Assembly: GCA_024640045.1 (NCBI GenBank) | Contig: JAHEFS010000228.1 | Location: 1 to 60,138, forward strand | Origin: Chromatiales bacterium | GTDB lineage: Bacteria; Pseudomonadota; Gammaproteobacteria; Xanthomonadales; SZUA-36 | DNA: 60,138 bases | Direction of reading: 5' to 3' | Part shown: piece after piece, positions 29,384-38,129 of the stretch | Layout: each line of letters starts with the position of its first letter | How positions within the stretch are numbered: the stretch's first letter is position 1 | The notes under the pieces: model-generated | What the model was told of the DNA's origin: nothing | What the model saw: only the letters and a program-made list of their open reading frames with translations | The model's database searches: none | Program-made: the position numbers and the translations under genes

Positions 29384-31600
29384 CTACTTCTCAGGCACTC
29401 TCTCCACATCCAGGGTTTCCCGTTGCACTGCAATTCTCCGTTGGTGCTCGGCCGATGCCGCCTGGAATCGGGGTTCGTGACGAATCAGGTCATACATTGG
29501 CATTTGGTGGACAATGTACCAGTCATTCAGGTGGTTGTGAGCCAGTTGGGTTTCGATGCTCTGCAAGGCTTTCTCCGTGTCGCCGGCAGCCAGGTAGCAT
29601 GCATCCGGAAAATACACGTCAGGGTGCTCGGTCAACAACGGCAGCGAGTCTTCCATGAAAGCTGTTGTTTGCTGTAACAATGCTTCACCAAGCTCATGAT
29701 TCCCGGTGTTCATGAACAACCAGGCAACGAAACAACCGATTGGCTTCCTGTAGCCAATCGATGTAAACAGATCTGGCCATTGATCAGGTTCGAGCCAGCG
29801 CGGTTCGATCGACAGAAATATTTCGCGTGAAAGTTGAATGTCGCCCTGGGCAAGTGCGATTGAACCCACGATCAGAGGCAGGAAACCAATATTCTGTATT
29901 TCCGGCAACAGCCATTGGATGGTTTCCCGGGTGCCGGCCTTGTTTCCTTTGCCATAACTGAGATGTACGTCAACAAGACCCGACATCCACTCCGGTGCGC
30001 CCAGATCGACTATTTTGTCGCGAACTTGTTGAACCGCTTCCAAATCCCCCAGGTTCATGAATATGCCGCCCGTATATAAATAGCTGTTGGGGCTCTCAGG
30101 GTCGAGCGCAATCATTTTGTTCATCAAGGCCAGCGCTTTGTCCAGTTGCCCCATGTCATGCCGGTACAAATCTGACAGCCCCCCATATCGCGGGGCGAAA
30201 TCCGGGTTGAGTTCAATCACTTTTTTATATTGGTTTTCTGCCAGCGTGTAGAGCCCCCTGGAGCGGTAAATCGTTGCCAGGCTGACGCCGATAATGCCTG
30301 ACCTTGGATCCAGTATGGCGGCCTTTTGCATCAGGTCAGTGCTTTCCTGAATCCGCAGTGGGTCAGTCAGGCCAATGTGTGATGAATACCATTGATAAGC
30401 GGTGGCATAGTTGGGACTTAATTCGATGGCTTTTTGATACGCTGCTTCTGCTTCATCATCCCGCCCGTGGTAGTAATGTATCCAGGCCAGCGAGGCATAC
30501 GCTTCGCCGAGGTCATTGTCGATGGCCATGGCGTTTTTCACGGCATCTTCAATGATGGGCCACGTTTCTTCGGCATCACCCCATTGCATTGAAAGGAAGA
30601 GGCTATCCGCCACACCCACCCATGCCAGCGCAAACGAAGGGTCGATCTCGGTCGCTTTCTTAAATTCCTCAACAGCCAGTTTCAACTTGGCCGTGTGTCG
30701 GGTCGCCATCAATTGCCGGCCTCGCATATAGGCTTCATAGGCCTGCAGATTGTCGGTTGGTCGTGCGTCAACGCGCAGTTGTTCACCTGGGGAAAGCTCG
30801 GCCTGTAAGGCATCGGCAATCATCCTGGTTATTTCGCTTTGCACGGCGAACAGGTTTTCCGCGGTCAACTCTCGATCGTAGATTTCTGCCCAAAGGTGTT
30901 CATCCGTGACCGCATCGATCAACTGCACATTGATCCGAACATGGTTGCCGGAACGCTGGATACCCCCTTCCAGAATGTTGGCAACGCCCAGCTCCTGTGC
31001 AATCTGCGGCAGCTTCTTGACGGTGTCCTTATATTCTATGACCGAGGTACGTGAGATCACCTTCATCGAGCCAATCTTGGCGATGGTGGTCAGGAGATCA
31101 TCATGGATGCCATCGGTGAAGAACTGGTCTTCCTCGCGATTGCTGCGGTTATCGAAAGGCAGTACCGCAATGGATTTGTCACCGCGTGATTCGAGTATGG
31201 CAGTAGTGAGTCCTTCCTGCCGCGCCGATTGGGCGATTTGCTCATCTTCGACAGGGTCGAGCACAAACTTGTCAAATGCGAAGTACCCCAGAGCCAGGGC
31301 CAGCACAACCAGGATGATGTGGTCCAGTTTCCTGCCGGTGGTTTGGCTTGTTGACTCGTCGGCGTCAACGTCCGCGTCTTTCTTCAATCCATCCGGAGTA
31401 ATCTCGAATACCCAGGAAAGAACCAGGCTTGGTATGAAACCAATGGCCAGCACAATGACGACCAGTCGGGCGGGTGTGTCGCCGAAGCCGAACAATGGAA
31501 ATATCGTTTCGGCGACCTGGATCAGCAGCCACGCGCCCACCACGTAGGCCGTACCGATACGAAGAACATTCCGGCGCTTCAGTTCGCTAAATAAGGACAA
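29384..31600 (-). CDS. Membrane-anchored TolB-N-like/TPR protein
   Basis: The protein has 738 residues. Three hydrophobic helices near the N-terminus (IGTAYVVGAWLLIQVAETIF, VVIVLAIGFIPSLVLSWVF, IILVVLALALGYFAFDKFVL) would place the remainder outside the cytoplasm. A domain at about residues 140-270 (SIAVLPFDNRS, FFTDGIHDDLLTTIAKI, EGGIQRSGNHVRINVQLID) resembles the TolB-N-like domain found with adenylate cyclases, but no cyclase domain is present. At least six TPRs follow (LGEAYASLAWIHYYHGRDDE). The start is TTG with a poor ribosome-binding site. It is divergent from the lipoprotein/TIR genes. It probably works as a periplasmic sensor or scaffold; this is inference. Confidence 0.8.
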   Translation of the reverse strand: MSLFSELKRRNVLRIGTAYVVGAWLLIQVAETIFPLFGFGDTPARLVVIVLAIGFIPSLVLSWVFEITPDGLKKDADVDADESTSQTTGRKLDHIILVVLALALGYFAFDKFVLDPVEDEQIAQSARQEGLTTAILESRGDKSIAVLPFDNRSNREEDQFFTDGIHDDLLTTIAKIGSMKVISRTSVIEYKDTVKKLPQIAQELGVANILEGGIQRSGNHVRINVQLIDAVTDEHLWAEIYDRELTAENLFAVQSEITRMIADALQAELSPGEQLRVDARPTDNLQAYEAYMRGRQLMATRHTAKLKLAVEEFKKATEIDPSFALAWVGVADSLFLSMQWGDAEETWPIIEDAVKNAMAIDNDLGEAYASLAWIHYYHGRDDEAEAAYQKAIELSPNYATAYQWYSSHIGLTDPLRIQESTDLMQKAAILDPRSGIIGVSLATIYRSRGLYTLAENQYKKVIELNPDFAPRYGGLSDLYRHDMGQLDKALALMNKMIALDPESPNSYLYTGGIFMNLGDLEAVQQVRDKIVDLGAPEWMSGLVDVHLSYGKGNKAGTRETIQWLLPEIQNIGFLPLIVGSIALAQGDIQLSREIFLSIEPRWLEPDQWPDLFTSIGYRKPIGCFVAWLFMNTGNHELGEALLQQTTAFMEDSLPLLTEHPDVYFPDACYLAAGDTEKALQSIETQLAHNHLNDWYIVHQMPMYDLIRHEPRFQAASAEHQRRIAVQRETLDVERVPEK

Positions 31601-31851
31601 GGTCTGGCTTCAAGGTGGCCGCAGTTACACCCAAGAGTAATGCTTGGTCGGAAGGATGCCAACAGTATGCGTTACGTTGGTGATCCATTTGGTCCGCTCC
31701 TGGTCGAAAGGGTAAGTCAAAAAGAAGTTGGGCTTTTGGTGATTGGAAACAACTCGAGGACCTGCGCGCGTGCCTGCCCCGTACGCCAGGGGCCGATTCA
31801 CTTGTCGGAGTAGTATCTACTTGGATATTCAGTAGAAAAATACGAAATCTG

Positions 31852-31867
31852 CTATGTTTAGACATAG
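31852..31867. repeat. Short inverted repeat in the 341-bp divergent gap
   Basis: CTATGT at 31852-31857 is inverted as ACATAG at 31862-31867 with a four-base centre. It lies in the gap 31601-31941 between the TolB/TPR gene and the lipoprotein gene. Around it the DNA is AT-rich and promoter-like, but I could not fix a convincing -35/-10 pair. It could be an operator or a leader hairpin. Confidence 0.4.
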
Positions 31868-31941
31868 TAGTGTGAAAAGATGCGAAGCACTCGGACATGG
31901 AAGACTGAGGCTGGAACCTGGTTGCGAGAGGAGGATTAACA

Positions 31942-32556
31942 ATGAAAATGGCCGCTTTGTTCGGTACATTGATTTCCGTCGCCTTGTTGACCGGCTGTGC
32001 CGCCAACAGGGACTACCAATTCGACATGTTCAAGTTAACGTCGACAGGGGTCAAACCATTCAAGGTCACGCTGAACATCGACAGCAGCACAAATGTGCTG
32101 ACCCCCAAGGATAAGGGAATAAGCCGTAATTGCAGCGACAAGTTTGATGACAAGCTGAAGAAAGCCTGTTTCGTGGCAGAAGTCGGGGAGATGCTCGAGA
32201 TGGAGTTCAGGTTGCAGCAACCCGGCGGCACAAACTGGCGATTCACCAAAGTCTGGATCTGCTCTGGAACTATCAAACCAAACCCCGAAAATATGGCTGA
32301 CTGCTCGCTGACACCCAGCGAACGGGCGGATTTCGTCGTTGAGGCCAACAACGAAGTCAGGCTGATGCCTGGTAATGGAACCATCGACCTAACTTCATTT
32401 TCGCAACAACTGCGAGTCTTCACGATCAGGGACTTCAACTGGCTCGAACAGAATTACATTTACGTTATCGAAGCCTGCGAGGAAGGGTCGACCGATGTAG
32501 ACGACTGCGCCCGGCTGGATCCGGGTGGCACCAACAAGGGCCGGGGTCTCGGCTGA
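31942..32556 (+). CDS. Predicted outer lipoprotein of unknown family
   Basis: A lipoprotein signal with lipobox LLTGC (Cys19) is clear: MKMAALFGTLISVALLTGC. The mature part of about 185 residues is beta-rich with pairs of cysteines (NCSDKFDDKLKKACF, WICSG and DCSL, EACEEG and DDCARL) that suggest disulfides. Position +2 after Cys is Ala, which fits outer-membrane sorting. GAGGAGGA precedes the ATG. It lies 60 bp upstream of the TIR gene on the same strand, so they are likely cotranscribed. I recognise no family. Confidence 0.75.
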   Translation: MKMAALFGTLISVALLTGCAANRDYQFDMFKLTSTGVKPFKVTLNIDSSTNVLTPKDKGISRNCSDKFDDKLKKACFVAEVGEMLEMEFRLQQPGGTNWRFTKVWICSGTIKPNPENMADCSLTPSERADFVVEANNEVRLMPGNGTIDLTSFSQQLRVFTIRDFNWLEQNYIYVIEACEEGSTDVDDCARLDPGGTNKGRGLG

Positions 32557-32616
32557 CCCAACGAACACAGTCTCGCGTTGACATGATTCGCGCTCCGGCT
32601 CGCCGGACGATGCCAC

Positions 32617-34674
32617 ATGCCTGAGCTACGATACAGGGCCTATATCAGCTACAGCCATGCCGACGAGCGCTGGGCGGCGTGGCTGCAGCGCGCCCTGGAA
32701 ACCTATCGGGTGCCGGCCCGGCTGGCAGCCGAACGGGAGTTGCCGCGGCGGCTTTCACCCATATTTCGCGACCGTGAAGATCTTTCTTCGGCCAGCAACC
32801 TGGCTGACAGCCTGGTCGCAGCCCTGAACGATTCAGATGCCATGATCGTAGTGTGTTCGCCCGCCGCGGCAAGATCACGATGGGTGAACAAGGAAATACG
32901 CCTGTTCAGGGAACTCGGCCGGGCCGGGCGAGTTTTTTGCATGATCGTCGACGGCGACCCGGGTTCGCAATCCATCGACGAGGGATGCTTTCCGCCGGCA
33001 CTCCTGGAATGCGGCAATGCAGGGGCAGAGCCCCTCGCTGCAGATGTCCGCGATTTCGCGGACGGCAAGCGGCTGGCGAAGCTAAAGCTCGTTGCCGCCC
33101 TGTTGGGGGTACGCCTCGATGAATTGCGTCAACGCGATCTCACGCGTCGCCGCAGATGGCGAGCCCTGGGTGCGCTCGCACTGGCGGCAGCGCTTGCGCT
33201 CGGCGTCATCACGGTTTCGTCTCTCGTTTCGGAGCAGCGGGAGCGCGACAAAGCCGAGCAAATGGCGGCTTTTGTCGTAGAGTTGGGCGAAGACCTGCAG
33301 TCGGACATCGATCTTGACACGCTTGGCAGGATCAGCGCGCGCGCCATGGGCTACTTGCAGGAACTGGATCCCAGGAACCTGACACCGGAAACCAACATCA
33401 AGGTTGGGCTTGCCTTGCGTCAATTGGGGCACGTGAACCTCGGCCAAGCCAAGCTGCCCGAGTCTCTGACCGCCTACCAGCAGTCGCTCGGGCTGTTCCG
33501 GGAGTTGGCGGATAAGTACCCTGATCGCACGAACATCCAGTTCGAGCTGGCGCAGGCAGAATTTTACGTGGGCAACTACCACTATGAGCAGGGTGAGATC
33601 CAGGCGGCCTGGAAACCATGGCAACAGTACCTGGCCATTGCCCGGAAATTGTATGAAGCGGAGCCGTCCAACCGACAGTGGATGCTGGAATTGTCTTACG
33701 GCAGGCTGAATGTTTTGTTGCTGCGCATCTCGTCCGGAAAGAGCGCAGACCAGTCGCTGCTCGATGCCGCCGACGAATCGGTCGACCTGTCTCGCCGGAC
33801 GCTGCAAGCCTGGCCGGACAACAACGAGGTGATCAGCCACTATTCCAATGTGCTGGCCTGGGCCGCCGATGCAGAACTAAGCGCCTGTCACCTGGACACA
33901 GCCAGCGAATATCGGCACGAGACACTCACAATGGCGTCCGAGGCCTCGCGTGGCGACCTTTCCAACAATGACCTTCGCGAACGCCTGGCTTACGCGCATT
34001 CCGGCATGGCCAAGGTTCACAACGATCTTGGAAAGACGACAGAAGCGGAACGGCACCTCCAGACGACCCTGCGGATTCTCGGCGAATTAGGCGCCAGAGA
34101 TCCCAGTAACCGAATGCTGGCCTCCGAGATCGCCGCGAACAAGCGCCTGCTGGCCAATCTCCTGATGAATACACACCGTTTGGGAATGGCAGTTCCCCTG
34201 TTGCAGGAAGTCAAATCACATTTTGAGCCTCTGCCAGCCATCAAGGATTTGACCGAATCCGAAATCGGCGACTACGCGAGATTCATGGAAGACTACGCTG
34301 ACCTGATGATCCGGACGGGTGACGAGGCGCAAGCCCGCCAGGCGCTGACGCGCTTGTCGGAGATCGTCAATCACCAGTTGTCCGAGCGTGATCATCAACT
34401 CAAAGTCAAATACTCGGCAGCACGTTTACGATACCTGGGTTTAGTATTGGACCAGCGCGACCCGGCGCTGGATCTCCCCGCACTCGCCGAGGCCAAACCC
34501 GAGGACGACAGTGAATTCCGCAGCTGTTACGACGCGGATTTGAGCGCCCGGCTGGCCATTGTCGAGGGAGATCGACCGGGCGCCGTGCGCCAGGCAGAAT
34601 ATCTCCAAGCCAGGAAGTATCGTAATCCGGGCTTCATTCGATTCTGTGAAAGCCACGCGTTGTGCACCGAATGA
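32617..34674 (+). CDS. TIR domain - transmembrane - TPR protein
   Basis: The first ~135 residues form a TIR fold: YRAYISYSHADERWAAWLQ (strand A), IFRDREDLSSASNLADSL (BB region) and SDAMIVVCSPAAARSRWVNK with W89 and E93, where E93 sits at the catalytic glutamate position of NAD-cleaving TIRs. After a basic stretch (TRRRRW, 176-181) comes one membrane helix at about 183-205, then about 470 residues of TPR-like helices. The basic residues suggest a cytoplasmic TIR and a periplasmic TPR domain. Bacterial TIRs act in antiphage and cell-death signalling or as scaffolds. The exact role here is unknown. Confidence 0.82.
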   Translation: MPELRYRAYISYSHADERWAAWLQRALETYRVPARLAAERELPRRLSPIFRDREDLSSASNLADSLVAALNDSDAMIVVCSPAAARSRWVNKEIRLFRELGRAGRVFCMIVDGDPGSQSIDEGCFPPALLECGNAGAEPLAADVRDFADGKRLAKLKLVAALLGVRLDELRQRDLTRRRRWRALGALALAAALALGVITVSSLVSEQRERDKAEQMAAFVVELGEDLQSDIDLDTLGRISARAMGYLQELDPRNLTPETNIKVGLALRQLGHVNLGQAKLPESLTAYQQSLGLFRELADKYPDRTNIQFELAQAEFYVGNYHYEQGEIQAAWKPWQQYLAIARKLYEAEPSNRQWMLELSYGRLNVLLLRISSGKSADQSLLDAADESVDLSRRTLQAWPDNNEVISHYSNVLAWAADAELSACHLDTASEYRHETLTMASEASRGDLSNNDLRERLAYAHSGMAKVHNDLGKTTEAERHLQTTLRILGELGARDPSNRMLASEIAANKRLLANLLMNTHRLGMAVPLLQEVKSHFEPLPAIKDLTESEIGDYARFMEDYADLMIRTGDEAQARQALTRLSEIVNHQLSERDHQLKVKYSAARLRYLGLVLDQRDPALDLPALAEAKPEDDSEFRSCYDADLSARLAIVEGDRPGAVRQAEYLQARKYRNPGFIRFCESHALCTE

Positions 34675-35819: not shown

Positions 35820-38129
<2,310 letters not shown>

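What the first reader, a model, noticed from the sequence alone, without database searches (positions are those of the whole stretch)
29384..34674. Divergent pair of membrane TPR systems: TolB-N/TPR protein against lipoprotein plus TIR-TM-TPR protein
Seen in sequence: a three-helix TolB-N-like/TPR protein on the minus strand; on the plus strand a Cys-rich lipoprotein and, 60 bp later, a TIR domain with W89/E93, one membrane helix and a long TPR region. Predicted topology puts the TIR in the cytoplasm and both TPR regions on the periplasmic side. Inference: an envelope-sensing TIR signalling system, where the lipoprotein or TPRs detect a trigger and the TIR gives an enzymatic (for example NAD) output. 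I know of no described system with this layout.
Basis: partly seen in the sequence, partly recalled or inferred. Interest (0 to 1): 0.62.

Follow-up and report, generated by a model that had tools for sequence, protein, structure and literature searches.

The report
Self-cleaving-type lipoprotein paired with TIR receptor
The window holds one sensor cassette of an apparently undescribed bacterial alarm system: a small exported protein resembling a protein that cuts itself is encoded next to a membrane TIR receptor, and the likely membrane-damaging effector gene sits elsewhere in the same genome assembly.

Summary
The genes described are real, but the unit differs from the one proposed. The lipoprotein (31942-32556) and the TIR-TM-TPR protein (32617-34674) form a conserved cassette: all 34 confident partner-profile hits among 8,232 ORFs lie within 700 bp of a TIR-TM-TPR gene. 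The divergent TolB-N/TPR gene does not belong: its family has 75 matches in this genome and it is not a conserved neighbour.

Two things were missed. First, the lipoprotein is DP-EP (DUF1888)-like. Its predicted structure best matches SO1698, a Shewanella self-cleaving protein, and it keeps an invariant Asp-Pro (D193-P194) matching SO1698's C-terminal DPxIxN motif. Second, the cassette belongs with a SLOG-SLATT-SLATT gene. In this bacterial family 18 sampled genomes have both TIR receptor and SLOG-SLATT, 7 have neither. In the window's own assembly the complete operon is on another contig, so the window copy is a satellite sensor.

W89/E93 are invariant and the TIR is predicted cytoplasmic. 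TPR and partner co-diversify; TIR and SLOG-SLATT stay conserved. Best reading: an envelope sensor (DP protein plus TPR) drives a TIR-made NAD-derived signal to a SLOG-SLATT membrane effector. Function is untested.

The parts
31942..32556 (+). DP-EP-like lipoprotein, 204 aa; lipobox Cys at residue 19; predicted beta-rich fold; invariant Asp193-Pro194 near the C-terminus (candidate self-cleavage bond)
   Evidence: ORF; fold model pLDDT 84; Foldseek best hits SO1698 E 1.2e-4 to 5.1e-4; invariant D193, P194, N198, G200; C-terminal motif as in SO1698
32617..34674 (+). TIR-TM-TPR receptor, 685 aa: TIR about 1-175 with W89/E93, TM 186-204, TPR about 210-680 with Cys 424, 637, 677 and 683
   Evidence: Pfam TIR_2 6.3e-14 and TPR_12; model pLDDT 90; invariant residues; topology
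32518..32523 (+). codons of Asp193-Pro194 of the lipoprotein (predicted autocleavage site)
   Evidence: position computed from the ORF start; invariant in 19 relatives
32881..32895 (+). codons of W89 to E93 of the TIR domain (putative catalytic Glu)
   Evidence: translation; aligned with the W-x-x-x-E of plant TIR L6

Best explanation
The window carries a satellite sensor cassette of a three-component membrane alarm system. SHOWN by comparison: a small DP-EP-like protein and a TIR-TM-TPR receptor are encoded side by side, and a SLOG-SLATT-SLATT protein accompanies them, in the same operon or elsewhere in the genome. INFERRED: in the window's lineage the lipid-anchored DP protein and the TPR domain form the periplasmic sensor. 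A trigger, perhaps phage adsorption or injection or envelope damage, changes the contact of DP protein and TPR, possibly through autocleavage at Asp193-Pro194 and release of the C-terminal tail. The change passes through the single TM and brings the cytoplasmic TIR domains together, which use E93 to turn NAD+ into ADP-ribose or a cyclic derivative. The SLOG domain of the single genome-wide SLOG-SLATT protein binds that signal, and its 2TM SLATT units permeabilise or depolarise the inner membrane. Several sensor cassettes can feed one effector, as several ThsB sensors can feed one ThsA in Thoeris (family knowledge).
For: Adjacency of partner and receptor: every lipoprotein match lies 43-150 bp upstream of a receptor gene; all 34 profile hits below 1e-4 among 8,232 ORFs lie within 700 bp of a receptor gene; 23 of 27 genome-wide hits are receptor-adjacent. 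Third component: SLOG-SLATT and receptor co-occur 18/18 with 0/7 exceptions in the family; own genome contig C174 holds TIR, partner, SLOG-SLATT in a row; SLATT domains by NCBIfam. Enzyme site: S87, W89, E93 invariant, W-x-x-x-E aligned with plant TIR L6. Sensor side: TPR and partner mean identity 0.28 and 0.27 against 0.59 for TIR and 0.56 for SLOG-SLATT; partner distance follows TPR given TIR (partial r 0.37, 0/999) but not TIR given TPR (0.01). Location: 28/28 partners exported in the 4-Cys TPR clade, N-in topology 41/44. DP-EP-like fold and Asp-Pro motif. SLATT predicted as ADPr-derivative-regulated membrane effector: PMC9503650, PMC7159879.
Against: No functional data. Outside the window clade only about 5 of 48 partners have an export signal although the receptor keeps one N-in TM, so a purely periplasmic sensor cannot be general. 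SLATT scores are below curated cut-offs and SLOG is only weakly detected. Self-cleavage in this family is untested: SO1698's S114, two residues before the Asp, is not conserved, and D37 could not be mapped. The cassette is chromosomal, absent from phages and not found near full length on plasmids, often beside housekeeping genes, so a defence role is not shown. The assembly is 89% complete with 5.9% contamination, so contigs C172 and C174 may not come from one organism.
Confidence: 0.55

Rival explanations
1. Same architecture but a housekeeping role: a chromosomal envelope-stress or cell-fate signalling pathway in which DP protein and TPR report envelope state and SLOG-SLATT tunes membrane potential, not phage defence.
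For: No phage copies and no plasmid match covering most of the receptor; several loci sit beside housekeeping genes such as glmS/exbD, acs or a hydroxyacid dehydrogenase; no PADLOC system model matched above background.
Against: Patchy presence (7 of 25 family genomes lack it), several paralogous cassettes per genome, and fast-evolving sensor parts look more like a conflict system. SLATT is elsewhere linked to conflict systems (PMC7159879).
Confidence: 0.3
2. The DP protein is an inhibitor of the receptor (antitoxin- or guard-like): bound to the TPR it keeps the TIR off, and loss or cleavage of the DP protein releases the activity.
For: Obligate adjacency and TPR-partner co-diversification fit inhibitor pairs as well as ligand pairs.
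Against: A few receptors have no recognisable partner (for example L091). This differs from the best explanation only in the sign of the interaction, which sequence cannot show.
Confidence: 0.35
3. The TIR has no enzymatic role and only scaffolds other proteins.
For: Some TIR domains are scaffolds (PMC7075850, abstract); no activity was measured here.
Against: Invariant S87, W89, E93 and strict co-occurrence with a SLOG-SLATT protein.
Confidence: 0.12
4. One reading: the minus-strand TolB-N/TPR protein and the plus-strand cassette act as one system.
For: They lie head to head, 341 bp apart, in this window.
Against: 75 matches of that family in the same assembly; not conserved beside the TIR gene in relatives.
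Confidence: 0.03

Closest known systems
Thoeris (ThsB TIR signal maker plus SLOG-bearing ThsA effector)
   Same: TIR domain with conserved W-x-x-x-E, a SLOG-containing effector, possibly several sensors per effector; Pfam ThsB_TIR matches the TIR at 1.7e-7
   Different: The receptor is membrane-spanning with a TPR ectodomain and a DP-EP-like partner; the effector ends in SLATT domains instead of SIR2 or Macro; no Thoeris system model reaches its cut-off
SLOG/TIR with SLATT conflict systems predicted by Burroughs, Aravind and colleagues
   Same: TIR or other nucleotide-signal enzymes coupled to 2TM SLATT proteins (PMC9503650; PMC7159879)
   Different: I found no TIR-TM-TPR receptor and no DP-EP protein in the passages read; the 2015 source paper was not available
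DP-EP / DUF1888 family, SO1698 of Shewanella oneidensis
   Same: Beta fold, small size, C-terminal Asp-Pro in a DPxIxN tail
   Different: The window protein is a Cys-rich lipoprotein encoded beside a TIR receptor and does not reach the Pfam DP-EP model itself
Ser/Thr kinase-TM-TPR and winged helix/nSTAND1-TM-TPR proteins of Gammaproteobacteria
   Same: Related TM-TPR half, and a DP-motif gene next to it in most loci examined
   Different: The output domain is a kinase or STAND NTPase instead of a TIR

Membership tests
TIR domain (Pfam TIR_2) | match over the curated cut-off | tested here: met
   53.0 bits against 28; 54.7 bits in the genome search
TIR domain NADase | conserved catalytic glutamate (W-x-x-x-E) | tested here: met
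   W89/E93 invariant in 38 and 44 relatives; aligned with L6
TIR domain NADase | NAD+ cleavage | not testable with these tools
   needs biochemistry
DP-EP / DUF1888 | SO1698-like beta fold | tested here: met
   the only PDB matches at E <= 0.001 are four SO1698 structures, prob 1.00, TM-score 0.57-0.63 on the target but 0.36-0.40 on the query
DP-EP / DUF1888 | C-terminal Asp-Pro cleavage motif | tested here: met
   D193-P194 invariant in 19 relatives; SO1698 ends SPDPQIINRPQ
DP-EP / DUF1888 | Pfam PF08985 over the cut-off | tested here: not met
   window protein: no match; one related partner 25.5 bits against 25. So 'DP-EP-like', not filed as a member
DP-EP / DUF1888 | conserved active-site residues besides Asp-Pro (D37, S114 in SO1698) | tested here: inconclusive
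   the S114 position is not conserved in A3; D37 could not be mapped
DP-EP / DUF1888 | self-cleavage activity | not testable with these tools
   needs mass spectrometry of the purified protein
SLOG-SLATT protein (third component, outside the window) | SLATT 2TM domains | tested here: inconclusive
   SLATT_3 2.9e-5 and SLATT_1 3.6e-4 for the own-genome protein, significant but below curated cut-offs, repeated in relatives
SLOG-SLATT protein (third component, outside the window) | SLOG domain | tested here: inconclusive
   N-terminal VGVTGHR motif; only a weak YAcAr match (0.015) in one relative; SLOG assignment is partly recalled knowledge
Thoeris | ThsA-type effector (SIR2-SLOG or Macro) next to ThsB | tested here: not met
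   no such gene in the window neighbourhood; the linked effector carries SLATT domains; no PADLOC Thoeris hit

The most novel reading that the evidence does not exclude
A general, undescribed receptor design: a DP-EP-like (Asp-Pro self-cleaving) protein is the dedicated ligand or gatekeeper of a membrane TPR receptor whose cytoplasmic output is exchangeable (TIR feeding a SLOG-SLATT effector, Ser/Thr kinase, winged helix-nSTAND1). This would give DP-EP proteins a first biological role and bacterial TIR signalling an across-membrane, Toll-like mode of sensing.
Probability: 0.4. Interest if true: 0.87.

Novelty: new variant of a known kind. Interest (0 to 1): 0.68.

Why it matters
Characterised bacterial TIR systems such as Thoeris and CBASS sense infection inside the cell (own knowledge). 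A conserved TIR receptor with a predicted outside sensor, its own exported partner and a membrane effector would be a bacterial counterpart of a cell-surface Toll-like receptor. It would also give a context and a testable role to the orphan self-cleaving DP-EP family. Related operons occur in culturable Lysobacter, Rhodanobacter and Dyella, and the TIR plus DP pair in Caulobacter, so it can be tested now.

Tried and rejected
TolB-N/TPR gene as third partner: rejected. Single-protein scan of genome contigs with the TIR protein: no relatives; the alignment query worked. phmmer of the TIR protein against PDB: nothing; full-length profile and Foldseek hits are dominated by TPR proteins, so a TIR-only profile was used. 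PDB sequence search with the lipoprotein profile: nothing; Foldseek gave the answer. A single DP protein or a four-sequence DP profile against PDB: no useful hit; the mixed profile A6 gave SO1698 only at E 0.72, behind three unrelated chains, so only the position of the DP motif was taken from it. PF08985 across the class: no hit in 229 genomes, so that family's own neighbourhood could not be studied. Literature: no paper on this layout in the held library; the SO1698 paper is not held. The idea that every partner is periplasmic was dropped: most partners outside the window clade have no export signal.
Full report
CHECK OF THE OBSERVATION. The lipoprotein (31942-32556) has a clear lipobox and seven Cys and matches no family in Pfam, NCBIfam or PADLOC. 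The TIR-TM-TPR protein (32617-34674) begins 60 bp after its stop codon. It has TIR_2 at 6.3e-14, one TM at 186-204, and a confident model with an N-terminal TIR and a long helical repeat (pLDDT 90). W89 and E93 are present.

WHICH GENES BELONG TOGETHER. Searching 151 genomes of the order with the lipoprotein found matches in eight genomes, all of the same family, and in each the match lies just upstream of a TIR-TM-TPR gene on the same strand. A profile built from upstream lipoproteins then found diverged relatives directly downstream of other TIR-TM-TPR genes. Over 102 loci and 8,232 ORFs, all 34 hits below 1e-4 lie within 700 bp of a receptor gene; 15 profile members are among them by construction. 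Genome-wide, 23 of 27 profile hits are receptor-adjacent; of the other four, two adjoin a SLOG-type protein. The TolB-N/TPR gene is different: its family has 75 matches in this assembly and it is not a conserved neighbour.

WHAT THE LIPOPROTEIN IS. AlphaFold2 with 19 relatives gives a confident beta-rich fold (pLDDT 84, core above 90). The only four PDB matches at E <= 0.001 are structures of SO1698 of Shewanella oneidensis, labelled an aspartic peptidase, with D37A, S114A, D116A and P117A mutants deposited. From my own knowledge SO1698 is the DUF1888/DP-EP protein that cuts itself between Asp116 and Pro117; the paper (Osipiuk et al. 2012) is in the reference list of PMC11655445 but is not held. 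SO1698 ends SPDPQIINRPQ. The partner family has an invariant Asp-Pro (D193-P194 here) with N198 and G200. Even partners too diverged for the profile end in a PxIxN-type tail: 46 of 67 adjacent ORFs against 14 of 523 elsewhere, in loci outside the window clade, p 1.5e-39 (the motif was noticed in these same loci, so this describes the pattern and is not an independent test). One partner found beside a related TM-TPR protein passes the Pfam DP-EP cut-off. The window protein itself does not, so I call it DP-EP-like.

THE MISSING THIRD GENE. Many relatives have a further gene of about 570-600 aa with an N-terminal SLOG-like motif (VGVTGHR) and two SLATT domains. In the window's family its presence equals that of the TIR receptor: 18 genomes with both, 7 with neither (Fisher 2e-6, not corrected for relatedness). 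Common orders are TIR, partner, SLOG-SLATT and partner, TIR, SLOG-SLATT; at least one locus has two TIR genes with a partner at each end. Of 100 loci, 72 have an adjacent partner, 55 a SLOG-SLATT gene in the fetched stretch, and 45 both. In the window's own assembly, contig C174 carries the complete TIR, partner, SLOG-SLATT run, and this is the only SLOG-SLATT match. The window copy is therefore a satellite sensor cassette. A tree puts its TIR in a well-supported group of 11 whose partner is nearly always upstream, while the C174 TIR sits in the downstream-partner group.

HOW IT PROBABLY WORKS. Over 19 loci, TIR and SLOG-SLATT are conserved (mean identity 0.59 and 0.56) while TPR and partner are not (0.28 and 0.27). 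Partner divergence tracks TPR divergence after removing TIR (partial r 0.37, 0/999 permutations) and does not track TIR after removing TPR (0.01). That fits TPR plus DP protein as the sensing pair and TIR plus SLOG-SLATT as signal and effector. Published work describes TIR domains as producers of ADP-ribose-type signals and predicts SLATT to be an ADPr-derivative-regulated membrane effector (PMC9503650; PMC7159879). In the window's clade the TPR domain has four conserved cysteines and all 28 partners carry an export signal; 41 of 44 receptors have more positive charge on the TIR side of the TM. A periplasmic sensor is therefore well supported for this clade. The trigger, the role of Asp-Pro cleavage, and the phenotype are inferred.

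WHAT DOES NOT FIT. Outside the clade only about 5 of 48 partners have an export signal, though the receptor keeps one N-in TM. Either the partner acts on the cytoplasmic side there, or topology or export differs. I could not resolve this. There are no phage copies and no plasmid match covering most of the receptor, and many loci adjoin housekeeping genes, so a 'defence island' is not supported.

A WIDER PATTERN. The TM-TPR half also occurs with other N-terminal parts: Ser/Thr kinase, winged helix-nSTAND1, and nSTAND1 with another N-terminus. In about nine of twelve such loci a DP-motif gene lies next to it, one of them with a weaker motif. DP-EP-like proteins may thus be general partners of membrane TPR receptors.

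KNOWN AND NEW. TIR with SLOG or SLATT is a known kind of signalling, and Thoeris is its best-studied cousin, but the effector and receptor architectures differ and no Thoeris system model reaches its cut-off. I found no description of a TIR-TM-TPR receptor with a DP-EP partner in the held literature, which is open-licence only. Verdict: a real, conserved, apparently undescribed variant; the mechanism is plausible but untested.

Noticed in passing
L209, L210, L213, L215, L217-L220 (other genomes): DP-motif genes also lie next to Ser/Thr kinase-TM-TPR and winged helix/nSTAND1-TM-TPR genes, so the DP protein may be a general partner of TM-TPR receptors with exchangeable outputs.
   Followed up: partly
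29384-31600 and 75 matches across G000: The TolB-N/CadC-like TPR membrane protein belongs to a strikingly expanded family in this 3.2-Mb assembly, 75 matches, several in tandem runs, e.g. contigs C154 and C202.
   Followed up: no
partners outside the window clade, e.g. L105, L120, L151: The DP partner lacks an export signal in most other lineages although the receptor's predicted topology is unchanged: an unexplained change of compartment.
   Followed up: partly
L192 (G049:C124) and L194 (G042:C52): A DP partner is directly followed by a SLOG-SLATT gene without a TIR gene on the fetched stretch (a contig end in L192), beside an acetyl-CoA synthetase gene.
   Followed up: partly
L108:9054-10574 (Woeseiaceae): A 506-aa protein of unknown identity follows the TIR gene by 71 bp where SLOG-SLATT would be expected; possibly another effector.
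   Followed up: no
window 35820-38093: The catalase-peroxidase has an N-terminal stretch that looks like a signal peptide ([23 protein letters not shown]), suggesting a periplasmic enzyme.
   Followed up: no
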